Shown here piece by piece: positions 39,638 to 46,849 of a DNA stretch of 53,365 nt. The notes under the pieces are model-generated. The model was not told the origin of the DNA. It was given only the letters and a program-made list of their open reading frames with translations, and made no database searches. Position 1 is the stretch's first letter. Each line of letters opens with the position of its first letter. The stretch spans positions 1-53,365 of the forward strand of contig JAENYC010000025.1 in the NCBI GenBank assembly GCA_016841945.1, written 5' to 3'. The translations under genes were made by a program, and so were the position numbers. The DNA is from Haloplasma contractile (lineage in GTDB: Bacteria > Bacillota_I > Bacilli_A > Haloplasmatales > Haloplasmataceae).

Positions 39638-41515
39638 TTAATAACACCAATCATAATAAACTTCTTCATTAAATTCTAAATCTAATGTCTCTAACCATTC
39701 ATAAGTATCTAATCTGTGTGCTTGTATTTTGGCTAAAGAAACGGTATATAATACATCTTCTATATACATTCCTCTATTTATTTGATAACCATATTGGTAA
39801 CCATTTTCTTTATCTTCATCAAAATGGGTAATATCAGTTTGATAAGTAAAACCATTTTCTAAATCAACATGGAACACCTTATATGATTGATGATAATAAT
39901 ACCGATAAGTATTTTCTTCGTATCGATAAGATGTAGATGTAAATGGAAAAGCAAATAATTTTTTATCTTTATTAAACAACAATGCTTTATGATTATAATT
40001 TAATTCCGTATAAGCATATCCCTGATTTCCAAAATCAATGACCTCATTAAAAATTGCCTCTGGATTTTCTGGGTCTTCTACATCAAACATCGTCATTTTT
40101 AACCCTTTAATCACCGTAAATTCTCTACCATTTTCATTTTTAACTTCAGTTTCAAACCCAAACCCAATGATATGGCTATCATCATATGGATGTAAATAGG
40201 TACTATATCCTGATATCTTTAATTCTGATAAAATAATGGGATTTTCTGGGTCTTCTACATTGATCACAAAGAATGGATCGATCTGTCTAAAAGTGACTAA
40301 GTATATCCAATCACCTACAAAACGCGCTGATTGTATTCTTTCCCCTTCAGCAATTCCTTCTATACTAGATAATAATTCAAAGTTCTCATCATATATATAA
40401 AGATTATTTATACTATCATCACTCCACCACATTGCACCACTAGTTGTTGCGATTCTAAAGGTATTTTGATATTCATCCATTGAAAATTGATTATGAACAT
40501 ATCCTTTTACGATGACGTGTTGACTATCTCCAAAGGCATCATCCGTATAATTAATTTTAGTTACAATAGATTTGGTATCTTCTTTTTCCTCTTCTTTCGT
40601 AGTGGTTGTATCTTCGCTATCCGCATCATCTGTATTAACATCATCTAATAAAAAATCAAAGTAATAAACATTTTGCGCAATATAAACATTTTCTAAAGAT
40701 ACATAAACATGATGAGATGAACCAAGGTATGTATATTGAGATAAATCATCTTCAATCTGATTTAAATTAAACTTAGACAACGTGATAAAACTATCTGGGT
40801 ATGTTCCCTCATTATAATGAATATCTCGATAAGAGACTTCATAGTCACTTTCATTAATCTTTAATTTTGGTAATTTAAAAGATTCCAGATGATTCTTATC
40901 ATAACTTATATATTGATTTGTGATGACTAATAATTCATTATTCACCTTACGGGTTGTCACTGTATAACCATCAATCAATATGATATCCTGTGGTGTTTCA
41001 TAATTCTGTTTATCATAAATGATAATTTTTGTTTTAGAACCATAATAATGATAATCGCCATCTTCTTGATAATTATTTTGTCTACCAATGACCACTAAAT
41101 ACTCATCATCAACATAGAGTGAGTTTGGATAGAATCCATTCTCATATGTGATGGTTTCAACAAGCTCCATTTCATCAACCGGATAAGCCTTCGCAATTTG
41201 AACTGAATTTTTTGATGTTAAATATATATAAGTACCATCCGTCTTAACAATATCCGCTTCATCAACACCATTTACTTGAGTATTGGTTTTTGAATAATCC
41301 CGTTTCGGTTGATTGGTTTGGTCCACACTGCTTTCTGGAACACCAATGAAACCATACGACCCACCAACACGTTCTAACAAAGAGATTAAGTCATCTTTAG
41401 ATTCAAAAACAACTTCATCGCCAATCATAGTTTCATTATCAGTATCAATCAATGTACAACTGAATAAACCAAACACGACAAACAAAAACATCAAACTTAA
41501 TAATATTTTTTTCAA
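39638..41515 (-). CDS. Lipoprotein with PF09826-type beta-propeller domain
   Basis: The 625-residue protein starts with TTG 41515 (GGAGG eight bases upstream) and a lipoprotein signal (FGLFSC). The rest matches the secreted beta-propeller family: TNTQVNGVDEADIVKTDGTYIY, GNFYPNS-like blades, GSSHHVYVSLENVYIA and ARFVGDWIYLVTFRQIDPFF. An acidic Asp/Glu/Thr-rich insertion lies near 315. Function of the family is unknown; it has been found near ECF sigma factors. It is third in an operon with the sigma gene and a membrane protein, and has a paralogue at 45107-46810. Confidence 0.85.
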   Translation of the reverse strand: MKKILLSLMFLFVVFGLFSCTLIDTDNETMIGDEVVFESKDDLISLLERVGGSYGFIGVPESSVDQTNQPKRDYSKTNTQVNGVDEADIVKTDGTYIYLTSKNSVQIAKAYPVDEMELVETITYENGFYPNSLYVDDEYLVVIGRQNNYQEDGDYHYYGSKTKIIIYDKQNYETPQDIILIDGYTVTTRKVNNELLVITNQYISYDKNHLESFKLPKLKINESDYEVSYRDIHYNEGTYPDSFITLSKFNLNQIEDDLSQYTYLGSSHHVYVSLENVYIAQNVYYFDFLLDDVNTDDADSEDTTTTKEEEKEDTKSIVTKINYTDDAFGDSQHVIVKGYVHNQFSMDEYQNTFRIATTSGAMWWSDDSINNLYIYDENFELLSSIEGIAEGERIQSARFVGDWIYLVTFRQIDPFFVINVEDPENPIILSELKISGYSTYLHPYDDSHIIGFGFETEVKNENGREFTVIKGLKMTMFDVEDPENPEAIFNEVIDFGNQGYAYTELNYNHKALLFNKDKKLFAFPFTSTSYRYEENTYRYYYHQSYKVFHVDLENGFTYQTDITHFDEDKENGYQYGYQINRGMYIEDVLYTVSLAKIQAHRLDTYEWLETLDLEFNEEVYYDWCY

Positions 41516-42440: not shown

Positions 42441-42609
42441 ACTTATCTTTATTATAATCAAAAAAAACAAAATTTTAAAGAAAGATATACAAAAGTCATA
42501 ACAAAAAGAATATTTGGTCATTTTATAATTAAATAAATTTTTTAATCCGTAGAAAACTTAAATGACATGTAAAACAATTAATCAATATAATAAATAATTA
42601 TTTTGCGTT

Positions 42610-42638
42610 TATGAACTATTTTTCTTTATAAGTTCATA
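42610..42638. promoter_or_regulatory. TetR-type operator 1 of the ABC exporter
   Basis: TATGAACT-N13-AGTTCATA, flanked by TT/AA for further symmetry, lies immediately upstream of the -35 of the ABC exporter promoter. Confidence 0.65.
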
Positions 42639-42643
42639 AATTG

Positions 42644-42672
42644 TTGACACCTCCTCGAAGATATGATAATAT
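42644..42672 (+). promoter_or_regulatory. Promoter of the ABC exporter operon
   Basis: A consensus TTGACA (42644-42649), a 17-base spacer and TAATAT (42667-42672). It is sandwiched between, and its -10 overlaps, the two TATGAACT inverted repeats. Confidence 0.7.
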
Positions 42673-42698
42673 GAACTCAACTTAAGCTTAAGTTCATA
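42670..42698. promoter_or_regulatory. TetR-type operator 2 of the ABC exporter
   Basis: TATGAACT-N13-AGTTCATA again, exactly 60 bases downstream of operator 1, with an inner 16-base palindrome (AACTTAAGCTTAAGTT). It covers the -10/start region. Confidence 0.7.
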
Positions 42699-42723: not shown

Positions 42724-43605
42724 ATGATTCAAATTCAAAATATGTCAAAGATTTATCCAAATAATAAGGGAGTATTTAATGTCAATCTAGAAGTTAAAAA
42801 GGGAGAAGTATTTGGTTTTTTAGGTCCAAATGGAGCAGGAAAAACAACAACAATTCGTCAATTGCTTGGATTTACAAATGCGACAAAAGGAACTTGTTTC
42901 ATCAATGGATTAGATACAAGACAAAACGCTGCTGAGATTCAAAAAACATTAGGTTATTTACCGGGTGAAATCTCTTTTTTTGACCATATGACAGGTTATG
43001 ATTTTTTAAATTTTATTGCTCAAATGAGGGGATTATCTACAACGACAAAAAGAGATAAACTAATCGAATACTTTGAATTAGAATGTGAAAGAAAAATAAA
43101 AAAGATGTCTAAGGGAATGAAACAAAAAGTAGGAATTGTAGCCGCGTTTATGCATAATCCTGAAATTATCATATTAGATGAACCAACGAGTGGATTAGAT
43201 CCATTAATGCAAAAGCGTTTTATCCAACTAGTTAATGAAGAAAAGAAAAAAGGAAAGACAATACTAATGTCTTCACATATTTTCGATGAAATTGACAAAA
43301 CCTGTTCGAGAGCCGCGATTATAAAAGATGGAAAAATAGTCGCAATTGATCACATTCCTACGATGAAACAAAATTTAAGAAAATGTTATCGTATTACGGT
43401 TAAAAATGAAAGAGATGTTAAAAAAATTATCTCTTCTGGTCTAGAAATTGAATTAATTGATGATTTAAAAATACAGATCTACGTAAAAAACCAATTTGAT
43501 TTATTATTCAGCGTATTAAATGATTGTCAAGTAACAAGTTTAGACGCTGCAGAGCAAACGCTTGAACAGATATTCATTAAGTATTATGGAAAGGAGAATA
43601 ATTAA
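42724..43605 (+). CDS. ABC transporter ATP-binding protein (drug/exporter type)
   Basis: The 293-residue protein has Walker A GPNGAGKT (about 36-43), the signature MSKGMKQKVGI, Walker B IIILDEPTSGLDP and the switch histidine MSSHIF, plus a C-terminal extension typical of two-component exporters. It energises the permease encoded two bases downstream. ATG 42724 is used; TTG 42718 is an in-frame alternative and the RBS is weak. The operon promoter is bracketed by two identical operators, and a TetR regulator follows the permease, so induction by a toxic compound is likely. Confidence 0.92.
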   Translation: MIQIQNMSKIYPNNKGVFNVNLEVKKGEVFGFLGPNGAGKTTTIRQLLGFTNATKGTCFINGLDTRQNAAEIQKTLGYLPGEISFFDHMTGYDFLNFIAQMRGLSTTTKRDKLIEYFELECERKIKKMSKGMKQKVGIVAAFMHNPEIIILDEPTSGLDPLMQKRFIQLVNEEKKKGKTILMSSHIFDEIDKTCSRAAIIKDGKIVAIDHIPTMKQNLRKCYRITVKNERDVKKIISSGLEIELIDDLKIQIYVKNQFDLLFSVLNDCQVTSLDAAEQTLEQIFIKYYGKENN

Positions 43606-43606
43606 G

Positions 43607-44407
43607 ATGTCTTGGGTATTATTTAAAGCAAATATTAAATCTAATCGCTTTATCTGGCTATTAATTACAGGAATATTTTGTTTTTACTTCATGACGATCA
43701 TAGGAATGTATGATCCAAAAAGCAGTGAAGATATGAAACAACTTATCGAAATGTTACCACCGGAAATGCTAAACGCTATGGGTTTTACTAATATAGGCTC
43801 AACTTTAGTAAGTTATTTATCGGGTTATATTTATGGTTTTTTGATTTTCCTATTTCCAATGATTATTTCAATAGTAGTGAATCACCGTTTAATAGCCACT
43901 CATGTTGATAAAGGAAGCATGACCTATTTACTGACAACACCAAATTCACGATTCAAAATTTCGATAACACAAATGTTATTTAGTTTATTTTCAATTACAC
44001 TTATGTTTGTGGTTATTTTTCTATTCAGTACCATTGTTACCATTTCTTTATTTCCTGGTGAATTAGAAATAGGTAAATATTTACTATTGAATCTATATGC
44101 CATGAGCACTTTCTATGCGATTAGTGGAATTGGTTTCTTTGGCTCAGCAATCGCAAATGAAAGTAAACAGAGTTTAGGTATTGGAGTAGGAATTCCTGTT
44201 GGATTCATGGTTATTCAAATGATGAGTGGTTCAACTCCAAAAGTTGAATGGTTAAAATATTTAACACTGTACAGCTTATTTGACCCAAATGCAGTTGTCA
44301 ATTCCACTTCATTTGTTTGGATTGGGATGTCTATTCTACTCATTATCTCAGGTGGTTTGTATTCTATTGGAATTTACGTATTTAATAAGAAGGATTTGTA
44401 CATTTAA
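43607..44407 (+). CDS. ABC exporter permease
   Basis: The 266-residue protein starts at ATG 43607 after AAGGAG, one base past the ATPase stop; the frame extends upstream inside that gene but without an RBS. About six hydrophobic segments are visible, with a large loop after the first helix, as in ABC-2 type permeases (MSWVLFKANIKSNRFIWLLI start, YLLTTPNSRFKI loop). It probably exports a drug, peptide or lipid; the substrate is unknown. Confidence 0.87.
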   Translation: MSWVLFKANIKSNRFIWLLITGIFCFYFMTIIGMYDPKSSEDMKQLIEMLPPEMLNAMGFTNIGSTLVSYLSGYIYGFLIFLFPMIISIVVNHRLIATHVDKGSMTYLLTTPNSRFKISITQMLFSLFSITLMFVVIFLFSTIVTISLFPGELEIGKYLLLNLYAMSTFYAISGIGFFGSAIANESKQSLGIGVGIPVGFMVIQMMSGSTPKVEWLKYLTLYSLFDPNAVVNSTSFVWIGMSILLIISGGLYSIGIYVFNKKDLYI

Positions 44408-44412
44408 TATGT

Positions 44413-44455
44413 AAGTGACAAAATCTTTATGATTATTAGATTTTGTCACTTTTAT
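44413..44455 (+). terminator. Terminator after the ABC exporter operon
   Basis: AAGTGACAAAATCT pairs with AGATTTTGTCACTT (14 base pairs) and is followed by TTATTT, six bases after the permease stop. Confidence 0.85.
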
Positions 44456-44484
44456 TTACCATGTTATGAAATATTTGTTATAAT
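44456..44484 (+). promoter_or_regulatory. Promoter of the TetR gene
   Basis: TTACCA (44456-44461), 17 bases, TATAAT (44479-44484), 16 bases before the start codon. No TATGAACT operator is visible here, so the regulator seems to control the exporter rather than itself. Confidence 0.55.
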
Positions 44485-44500
44485 ATGTATAGGTGATACA

Positions 44501-45079
44501 ATGAATGGTTTTGAAAAAAGAAAAGAAATCTTAAAGAAAAATATAAAAGAAGCAGCATTTGCCTTATTCCGTGTTTATGGCATTCAAGGAGTTAAAATGA
44601 CAGATATCGCAAAAAAAGCAGATGTTTCTAAAGTGAGTATCTACAATTTTTTTGGAAGTAAAATGAATCTTGTTAAAAATATTATATTTGACTTCATGGA
44701 CCAAGCATATTTAGAGATGAGAGAAATTATGAATCAAGAATTATCGTTTGATAAAAAATTTAATCAAATATTTAATTTATCTTACCAGTCCTTTGACAAA
44801 CTTCGCGAAGGTGATTCGGATGGTCTTATTAATAATGAATTAATCCAAAATGAAGAAGTGCAAATATTTTTACGTGAATATTCAGAGAAAAAAATCAAAC
44901 CTCTGTTTCGTGAGTTAATATCTCAAGGACAAAGAGAAGGTTCCGTTGATGAAACGTTAGATATTACAACAGTCTTCCTATATATCCAAACGATGCAAAC
45001 TATCCTGAATTCTTCCTTAACAATTAAACAAAGAAATGACCTTGGAAAATTAATCTTTTATGGAATAAGAGGTAAATAA
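44501..45079 (+). CDS. TetR/AcrR-family transcriptional regulator
   Basis: The 192-residue protein starts at ATG 44501, four bases after AGGTGA; the longer frame from 44429 runs through the promoter and terminator and is rejected. The N-terminal helix-turn-helix is MTDIAKKADVSKVSIYNFFG (about 30-49) and the remainder is an all-helical ligand domain. It is the natural candidate to bind the duplicated operator before the ABC exporter genes. Confidence 0.9.
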   Translation: MNGFEKRKEILKKNIKEAAFALFRVYGIQGVKMTDIAKKADVSKVSIYNFFGSKMNLVKNIIFDFMDQAYLEMREIMNQELSFDKKFNQIFNLSYQSFDKLREGDSDGLINNELIQNEEVQIFLREYSEKKIKPLFRELISQGQREGSVDETLDITTVFLYIQTMQTILNSSLTIKQRNDLGKLIFYGIRGK

Positions 45080-45086
45080 TATGAAA

Positions 45087-45108
45087 AGAACAGCTAATTA
45101 GCTGTTCT
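45087..45108. terminator. Bidirectional terminator between TetR and the beta-propeller gene
   Basis: AGAACAGCTAA and TTAGCTGTTCT form a perfect 22-base palindrome overlapping the stop of the propeller gene. On the minus strand it is followed by TTTTCATATT. Confidence 0.75.
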
Positions 45109-46810
45109 ATCTTAAATACACTTCATCTAATAATTTTAAATCATATAAAGCATTCTTCTTTATTAACTTATCAGATACTGTATACAAGGCTTGATCTAAA
45201 ACAAGCCCTTTTTTAATATCATCACTGACATTATTATATTTCCCTTTTTCATAATGACTCACTTTTCCAAGTTTTTTTAAACCTGTTTGATCAATTTTAT
45301 ATAGCGCATAAAACTGTTTATAATAAGAAACTTCTGTTCCTGGTTCATCTATCCAGTATATAATTGGAAAACCTAATATATGATGTTTTCTATCTAATAA
45401 TAATGATTTACAATCATATAAGACGTCTGTATAAGCACTATTATAATCCTTATATAAAATAGTATCTTTAGAAACAATTTTGACTTGATTTGGATTAGAA
45501 ACATCATATAAGGATATTTTTAATCCAGTCGATTGTTTATCTTGATTTAACAATAATCCAAATGCGAGAATATAATTTTCATCATAGGGGACGAAATTTG
45601 TGTTATAGCCTTCAAATTTTATTTCACTGATGATTTTTGGTTTTTTTTCATCTGATAGATCAATTACATAAAAGGGATCAATAATATTAAATGTTTCAAT
45701 ATAGGCTTTATCTTTTATAAATACCGCAGCTTGTATTTCATTTCCTACTGAAAACCCTTCAAGCTTTCCAACGATCTTCATCCTATTATCCAAAATATAA
45801 ATATTATTGCTGTCTTTCATATGATCTTCATCTGATGTTGATGTAGCAATTCGTAAATGACCTTTATATTCATTTAAGGAATATTGATCTAATACATAAC
45901 CTGGTACTTGTTGAAGACCCGATAATCTTAAATCTTTTTGATTTATTTTTATAATAATGGTTTTATTTGAATTCCCTGTTTCTTTTGCATACTTTTCTTC
46001 TGCGATAAAGATATCAGTTGGTGAAAAATAAATTACTTGTCCTAATCCTAAATAACTCATAATTTCTAAATTGTCTTTCTGATTAATATTGGTTTTTATA
46101 ATATTAACATAATTATTAGGATAGGTTTGATTAATATAATAGATTTTATCTATTGGGATATATTTTTCTTCACCATTTTCTGTATAAACGGGTCTTTTCT
46201 CACTTTGTTTCTTATTTTCTATTATTTTTGAAGTGATCACAAATAATTCTTCATCAATCAATCGACTTGTCACGTAAGTTGCATCGATTTGAAAATTTTT
46301 TAATTCTTCGAAATCATCCTTATGATATATATAGGTCCTTGTCTTATTTACTGCTTCACCAACAACCACTAACTTATCCTCAGTGATATATAAAAACATC
46401 GGTTTAAATGGTTGCCCTATATATGTGATTTCATCCCTCACTTTTAAATCATCGATATTGGTTATGACTACCTTACTACTTGATATACTATAGATATAAT
46501 TTTTATCATGAACCACTTGGTTTGGTTCTCTCACCTGTTTATTGATCACCTTATAGGGATTTAAAGTTCTTGTTAATTGCACATCATTTGCGAGCTGATG
46601 ATTACTAAAATCTGACCAAATTTCAGTAATTTGTTGGGGTGATGCTATATTCACATAGGTCACTTTATTTCTTTCATTGTTTATTAAATGAAAAATAGAG
46701 ATCCCAACTAAAGAAAGAAAAAATAAACTAATAATATTTAATTTAATCTTGTTTTTTATGATTAATACGTACAAGATGATGACGATTAATCCTATAACGA
46801 TTCCTTGCAT
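45107..46810 (-). CDS. Membrane-anchored PF09826-type beta-propeller protein
   Basis: A 567-residue paralogue of the lipoprotein at 39638-41515, sharing the blade pattern (SYLGLGQVIYFSPTDIFIAE, AAVFIKDKAYIETFNIIDPF, YNTNFVPYDENYILAFG). Instead of a lipobox it has two N-terminal transmembrane helices (about 2-20 and 28-44). ATG 46810 is seven bases after GAGGTGG; the GTG at 46822 is inside that RBS. It is downstream of prfA and the terminator at 46811-46849, whose 3' arm contains its RBS. Function unknown. Confidence 0.82.
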   Translation of the reverse strand: MQGIVIGLIVIILYVLIIKNKIKLNIISLFFLSLVGISIFHLINNERNKVTYVNIASPQQITEIWSDFSNHQLANDVQLTRTLNPYKVINKQVREPNQVVHDKNYIYSISSSKVVITNIDDLKVRDEITYIGQPFKPMFLYITEDKLVVVGEAVNKTRTYIYHKDDFEELKNFQIDATYVTSRLIDEELFVITSKIIENKKQSEKRPVYTENGEEKYIPIDKIYYINQTYPNNYVNIIKTNINQKDNLEIMSYLGLGQVIYFSPTDIFIAEEKYAKETGNSNKTIIIKINQKDLRLSGLQQVPGYVLDQYSLNEYKGHLRIATSTSDEDHMKDSNNIYILDNRMKIVGKLEGFSVGNEIQAAVFIKDKAYIETFNIIDPFYVIDLSDEKKPKIISEIKFEGYNTNFVPYDENYILAFGLLLNQDKQSTGLKISLYDVSNPNQVKIVSKDTILYKDYNSAYTDVLYDCKSLLLDRKHHILGFPIIYWIDEPGTEVSYYKQFYALYKIDQTGLKKLGKVSHYEKGKYNNVSDDIKKGLVLDQALYTVSDKLIKKNALYDLKLLDEVYLR

Positions 46811-46849
46811 AAAAAAATCCACCTCATTATATTATGAGTGGATTTTTTA
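46811..46849 (-). terminator. Terminator hairpin containing the next gene's ribosome binding site
   Basis: On the minus strand AAAAAATCCAC-TCAT pairs with ATGAGGTGGATTTTTT with one bulged base, then the T-run leads straight into ATG 46810. The GAGGTGG in the 3' arm is the propeller gene's RBS. Confidence 0.75.

What the first reader, a model, noticed from the sequence alone, without database searches (positions are those of the whole stretch)
42610..42698. Duplicated TATGAACT-N13-AGTTCATA operator exactly 60 bases apart
Two identical-geometry 29-base inverted repeats bracket a TTGACA promoter; one lies before the -35 and one covers the -10/start. The 60-base period is close to six helical turns, so both would face the same side of DNA. 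The half-site spacing is longer than typical TetR operators, suggesting cooperative binding of dimers.
Basis: seen in the sequence. Interest (0 to 1): 0.55.

Follow-up and report, generated by a model that had tools for sequence, protein, structure and literature searches.

The report
Paired TetR operators before ABC exporter
Two copies of a long mirror-image DNA site flank the promoter of a membrane-pump operon, and relatives show that they are very probably the landing sites of the neighbouring TetR-type switch protein; this is ordinary pump control in outline, with an unusual gene order and a slightly altered site.

Summary
They precede an ABC-ATPase/permease operon, with a TetR gene downstream behind its own promoter. 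Profile search found this TetR subfamily in 112 of 249 genomes of a Bacillales order. Of 124 such loci, 112 carry the same palindrome upstream of tetR, with N14 (0 of 124 inside tetR, 0 of 123 downstream). Where tetR is divergent from an ABC ATPase, 84 of 91 loci carry two copies; elsewhere 2 of 33 do. In the window the distance from the first site to the -35 and the overlap of the second with the -10 equal the modal geometry of the 61-class. So the TetR-operator reading is well supported, on comparative evidence only. The "same helix face" argument is not: the two natural spacing classes differ by about half a turn. Each 29-30 bp site probably binds two dimers (QacR-like). Peculiar here: N13 in both copies, tetR moved downstream with no operator of its own, and a cassette absent from three relatives at the same place.

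The parts
42610..42638 (.). Operator O1: TATGAACT-N13-AGTTCATA (arms extend to 42608-42640), upstream of the -35
   Evidence: subfamily motif
42644..42672 (+). Predicted promoter of the ABC operon: TTGACA (42644-42649), 17 bases, TAATAT (42667-42672)
   Evidence: same place relative to both operators in most of 53 relatives
42670..42698 (.). Operator O2: TATGAACT-N13-AGTTCATA, overlapping the -10 and the predicted transcription start
42724..43605 (+). ABC transporter ATP-binding protein, DrrA-like (293 aa, ATG start)
   Evidence: Pfam ABC_tran; TIGR01188 drrA best but below its cut-off
43607..44407 (+). ABC-2 type permease (266 aa)
   Evidence: Pfam ABC2_membrane_2
44413..44451 (+). Hairpin (14-base arms AAGTGACAAAATCT / AGATTTTGTCACTT), probable terminator between permease and tetR
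   Evidence: read; within inverted repeat I1; loop of 11 is too long for the terminator scan
44455..44484 (+). Predicted separate promoter of tetR (TTTACC-18-TATAAT); holds a lone half-site TATGAAAT at 44465-44472, no full operator
   Evidence: no full site
44501..45079 (+). TetR-family regulator, 192 aa (MNGFEKRK... subfamily), predicted to bind O1 and O2
   Evidence: residue 33 covariation

Best explanation
O1 and O2 are operators of the TetR protein encoded at 44501-45079. Without ligand the repressor sits on both; O2 covers the -10 and start of the ABC operon's promoter and O1 abuts its -35, so RNA polymerase cannot use it. A ligand, probably a toxic compound that the pump expels, releases the repressor (inferred from the family, not shown). 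Each 29-bp site most likely takes two dimers, as in QacR, because the half-sites are two helical turns apart. In relatives tetR lies on the other side and O1 also covers the tetR promoter; here tetR lies downstream behind its own promoter without an operator, so both sites now serve the pump promoter alone and the repressor is probably not autoregulated. Shown by comparison: the link between TetR subfamily and motif, and the promoter geometry. Inferred: binding, stoichiometry, ligand, repression.
For: Motif upstream of 112 of 124 subfamily tetR genes, 0 of 124 inside and 0 of 123 downstream with the same matrix; motif-free test: perfect 8+8 palindromes with gap 14 in 26 of 111 upstream regions against 1.6 expected; held-out halves 52-54 of 62 against 0 of 62 shuffled. 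Two sites in 84 of 91 loci divergent from an ABC ATPase, in 2 of 33 others. L034 has exact TATGAACT-N14-AGTTCATA twice, 62 apart. Window geometry equals the mode of the 61-class: 5 bases O1 to -35 (39 of 53), -10 starting 3 bases before the O2 core (47 of 53). Met at residue 33, at the start of HTH helix 2, goes with C in TGAACT in 20 of 22 half-sites (six loci); the window TetR has Met33 and C in 4 of 4.
Against: All comparative; no binding data. N13 instead of N14: among 124 Bacillales loci 94 have an N14 pair at one mismatch or less, and the N13 class is empty. The window TetR is a long branch with unsure placement and at most 36% identity. Of 16 subfamily-like TetRs from its own class only three had a like pair near them, with gaps 12, 13 and 14 (L061, L064, L070). 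The covariation is not corrected for relatedness. 12 of 124 loci have no site.
Confidence: 0.86

Rival explanations
1. Only O2 matters for the pump. O1 is a relic of the ancestral divergent layout, in which it covered the tetR promoter; it no longer has a task.
For: Two sites occur almost only where there are two divergent promoters (84 of 91 against 2 of 33). In the window no tetR lies to the left.
Against: Both sites are perfect in their 8-base arms, O1 even to 10 bases, and both have the same changed gap of 13; a relic should drift. O1 keeps the modal distance to the -35.
Confidence: 0.3
2. O1 controls leftward transcription towards the ECF sigma operon (42391 downwards), so the pair serves two promoters as in the relatives.
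For: A weak leftward promoter-like match overlaps O1 (TTCATA-17-TATTAT, 42615-42587, 9 of 12).
Against: The sigma gene starts 219 bases away and has a better candidate at 42479-42451 (10 of 12); nucleotide similarity to the same-genus genome, which lacks the cassette, runs to 42466, so most of the sigma promoter region is older than O1. The promoter scan overall finds no more matches than shuffles.
Confidence: 0.08
3. The sites belong to another regulator, for instance a GntR protein of the YtrA kind (recalled: long-gap operators at ABC operons).
For: A gap of 13-14 is also recalled for YtrA-type operators; nothing else.
Against: The motif follows this TetR subfamily across 112 of 124 loci, in several gene neighbourhoods.
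Confidence: 0.03
4. Chance inverted repeats in AT-rich intergenic DNA.
For: AT-rich region; many short inverted repeats.
Against: No duplicated 8+8 repeat in 60 shuffles; conservation across relatives.
Confidence: 0.01

Closest known systems
QacR and its 28-bp operator (also CgmR 32 bp, Ms6564 31 bp, CprB 22 bp; PMC4150764, passages read)
   Same: TetR-family fold; operator of 28-32 bp, long enough for two dimers; in QacR's case repression of a drug exporter
   Different: Here two such operators flank one promoter, the conserved bases are at the outer ends (TTWTGAAMTAT), and sequence relation is only at family level; stoichiometry not measured
HlyIIR of Bacillus cereus (PMC1828608, passages read)
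   Same: TetR family; gene directly downstream of its target; long inverted repeat (44 bp) at the promoter; authors report two dimers per operator
   Different: One continuous 44-bp repeat centred 48 bp upstream of the start, controlling a hemolysin gene and not an exporter; operator sequence not compared here
TimABR of Listeria monocytogenes (PMC11970672, passages and one section read)
   Same: ABC exporter operon with a repressor that leaves the promoter when tartrolon B is added; repressor gene named last in the operon
   Different: I had no TimR sequence or operator to compare; common ancestry not tested
SczA of Streptococcus pneumoniae (recalled only; paper not held)
   Same: TetR-family regulator with a recalled motif of two 6-base half-sites 14 bases apart
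   Different: Recalled half-sites run the other way (TGTTCA...TGAACA); metal regulator of a zinc exporter
RefZ (NF037937)
   Same: Best NCBIfam match of the window TetR, 37 bits
   Different: Far below the family cut-off of 180 bits

Membership tests
TetR family of regulators | N-terminal TetR_N helix-turn-helix domain | tested here: met
   Pfam PF00440 41.6 bits, cut-off 24; all-helical AlphaFold2 model, mean pLDDT 85; Foldseek hits are TetR-family chains
TetR family of regulators | Palindromic operator at the regulated promoter | tested here: met
   (by sequence and comparison; binding not tested)
The MNGFEKRK/MDGFQRRR TetR subfamily defined here by profile A1 | N-terminal signature and profile score | tested here: met
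   window protein begins MNGFEKRK and is in A1 by construction; 26-34% identity to the first 13 relatives
The MNGFEKRK/MDGFQRRR TetR subfamily defined here by profile A1 | Operator with a gap of 14 | tested here: not met
   gap 13 in both window sites; 94 of 124 relatives have gap 14, none 13
The MNGFEKRK/MDGFQRRR TetR subfamily defined here by profile A1 | tetR next to and divergent from the controlled ABC genes | tested here: not met
   tetR is downstream and co-oriented; of 141 loci the window alone has a detectable homologue of the permease directly upstream of tetR in the same direction
QacR-like dimer-of-dimers binding | Two dimers per operator | not testable with these tools
   inferred from half-site distance (21-22 bp) against 31-38 A between recognition helices
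DrrAB-type drug exporter | DrrA family cut-off | tested here: not met
   TIGR01188 207.7 bits against cut-off 312.45; so DrrA-like only

The most novel reading that the evidence does not exclude
O1 and O2 form one cross-promoter repressor complex of up to four dimers. When the gap inside each site shrank from 14 to 13, the distance between the two inner half-sites (39 bp) and their fit to the -35 and -10 stayed at the modal values of the 61-class, and both sites stayed perfect after tetR left the other side; this would make the window a natural case in which a two-promoter switch was turned into a double lock on one promoter.
Probability: 0.3. Interest if true: 0.5.

Novelty: new member of a known kind. 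Interest (0 to 1): 0.4.

Why it matters
It gives a defined operator (a 30-bp palindrome with half-site TTWTGAAMTATWW) for a TetR subfamily found in nearly half of the sampled genomes of one Bacillales order (112 of 249), mostly next to ABC exporters, for which I saw no description in the paper searches. That makes regulons and inducers of these pumps easy to test. The window itself is a rearranged, probably acquired copy that can be used to ask what a second operator adds when it no longer serves a second promoter.

Tried and rejected
Wider regulon in the own genome: rejected, no more sites than the reversed control at 2 mismatches; the N14 version gives 126 against 104 control matches at 2 mismatches, and no exact one among the places listed. 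Same-face argument: rejected as a rule. Autoregulation of tetR through a full site: not found; only a half-site TATGAAAT at 44465-44472. Close kin in the own order: none of the other seven genomes has the subfamily at E 1e-20; phylum search at 1e-35 found only the own genome (1 of 295). Tree: placement of the window TetR unsure, so no statement on its donor. Defence library: only generic ATPase-domain matches. Direct paper search with the half-sites gave no paper on such an operator among the 20 of 61 listed. SczA literature was not held in usable form.

Rows left out: of 117 hits, five were already in hand and one (G659, contig edge) was not fetched, leaving 111; with the 13 that is 124. Of the 24 hits besides the window's own, I fetched the 16 best with wider flanks and report them separately. 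The matrix was trained on the same 124 loci; the held-out test, the downstream and in-gene controls, and the motif-free test are the guards. The 124 loci are related to one another and were found with a profile whose first 13 rows were seeded partly on MNGFEKRK, so counts are not independent events.

Full report
What is there. The window holds TATGAACTATTTTTCTTTATAAGTTCATA at 42610-42638 and TATGAACTCAACTTAAGCTTAAGTTCATA at 42670-42698. They are the only exact TATGAACT-N13-AGTTCATA sites in the 3.43 Mb genome. No other perfect 8+8 inverted repeat recurs within 200 bases in the window, and none did in 60 shuffles. Between them lies TTGACA-N17-TAATAT. Downstream follow an ABC ATP-binding protein (42724-43605), an ABC-2 permease (43607-44407), a hairpin that looks like a terminator (44413-44451), and a TetR gene (44501-45079) with its own promoter-like sequence. 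Upstream, an ECF sigma gene reads leftwards from 42391.

Is the TetR the right partner? A scan of genome contigs with the TetR gave 13 relatives of 26-34% identity in Bacillaceae and Paenibacillus. Several are divergent from an ABC ATPase with 35-55% identity to the window's, and the shared intergenic regions hold the same palindrome, twice, with a gap of 14; in Lysinibacillus alkalisoli (L034) both copies are exact TATGAACT-N14-AGTTCATA, 62 apart. A profile of these TetRs (A1) found the subfamily in 112 of 249 genomes of the order of L022. I used 111 further loci. A motif-free test showed an excess of perfect 8+8 palindromes upstream of these genes at gaps 10, 12, 14, 16, 18 and so on, as one long even palindrome gives (gap 14: 26 of 111 against 1.6 expected). 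An iterated matrix found at least one site in 112 of 124 loci and two in 86, none inside 124 tetR genes and none after 123. Trained on half of the loci it found 52-54 of 62 in the other half and 0 of 62 in shuffles. The consensus half is TTWTGAAMTATWW, strongest at the TG and the second A.

Why two copies? Two sites occur in 84 of 91 loci where tetR is divergent from an ABC ATPase, one in six and none in one; in the 33 other loci 20 have one, two have two and 11 have none. So in the family, as a rule, one site goes with each promoter. Spacing is in two classes, 61-64 (53 loci) and 66-69 (31), with single cases of 51 and 87. In both classes the tetR-side site ends 5-6 bases before the -35 of the ABC promoter in most loci (50 of 53 and 23 of 28 with a promoter found; 3 of 31 in the second class had none); in the first class the -10 starts three bases before the core of the other site (47 of 53), in the second class that site lies about six bases further down. 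The window has 5 bases and three bases, the mode of the first class, and its spacing of 60 equals 61 less the one base lost from the gap. The distance between the inner half-sites is 39 in both. A shift of six bases between the classes is about half a turn, so a common face of the helix is not a general requirement.

What differs here. First, the gap is 13 in both sites; no Bacillales locus of 124 has a 13 pair at one mismatch or less, against 94 with 14. In the own class one TetR neighbour (L064) has a degenerate 13 pair and one (L061) two 12 pairs 65 apart. Second, tetR is not across the promoter but downstream; none of the other 140 loci examined has a detectable homologue of the permease directly upstream in the same direction. 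Its own promoter has only a half-site. Third, in three relatives of the same family (G005, G007, G001) the sigma gene and the beta-propeller gene that flank the cassette here are neighbours, and nucleotide similarity with G005 stops at 42466 and resumes at 45113. With the subfamily absent from the other seven genomes of the order at E 1e-20, acquisition as a cassette is the simplest reading, though loss elsewhere is not excluded.

Recognition. The residue that best predicts A or C in TGAAMT across 112 loci is position 33 of the window numbering, at the start of the second helix of the HTH: Met goes with C in 20 of 22 half-sites in six loci, which fall in three places of the tree; the window TetR, not used in the fit, has Met and C in all four. 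This is the best of about 190 columns (adjusted R2 0.34) and not corrected for descent, so it is support, not proof.

Mechanism. Published complexes put recognition helices of a TetR-family dimer 31-38 A apart, and operators of 28-32 bp take two dimers in QacR, CgmR and Ms6564 (PMC4150764, passages); HlyIIR, with a 44-bp repeat, is reported to take two dimers (PMC1828608, passages). Half-sites 21-22 bp apart (about 72 A in B-DNA) therefore suggest two dimers per site. O2 then blocks the -10 and start, O1 flanks the -35. Ligand and substrate are unknown; an exported toxic compound is the usual case (the Listeria TimABR system behaves so; PMC11970672, passages and one section). Whether O1 adds to repression here is the open point; its perfect state and the parallel gap change in both sites speak for it, the one-site-per-promoter rule of the relatives speaks against.

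Limits. Nothing here is a binding experiment. The loci are related and sampled by one profile. The AlphaFold2 monomer (mean pLDDT 85) only confirms the fold; Foldseek's best hits are general TetR-family chains with modest TM-scores. Absence from print refers to the searches in an open-access library.

Noticed in passing
window 39638-41515 and 45107-46822: Two related beta-propeller proteins (PF09826, about 30% identical) lie on either side of the sigma gene and the ABC-tetR cassette; the pair and the ECF sigma gene are contiguous in relatives G005 and G007.
   Followed up: partly
L218 and L219 (Rossellomorea aquimaris genome G489, C2:39362 and C14:23556): The same perfect 30-base palindrome (one orientation each) occurs at two places with no subfamily TetR within the 7 kb fetched, while the TetR locus of that genome (L025) has no site; perhaps remote targets or a repeat element.
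   Followed up: partly
window 42679-42694: The spacer and right arm of O2 contain a 16-base perfect palindrome AACTTAAGCTTAAGTT, offset from the operator's own centre and close to the predicted start; it could form a hairpin at the 5' end of the mRNA.
   Followed up: no
L026-L030, L107, L108, L117 and others: A subclade of these TetRs mostly has a single operator and a convergent gene of about 460-480 aa (in L029 flavoprotein-like by its sequence) instead of an ABC pump.
   Followed up: no
G000:C1:14971-15762 (L245): The own genome has a second ABC pair like the window's (ATPase 50%, permease 37% identical) with no like operator or subfamily TetR in the 8 kb fetched.
   Followed up: partly
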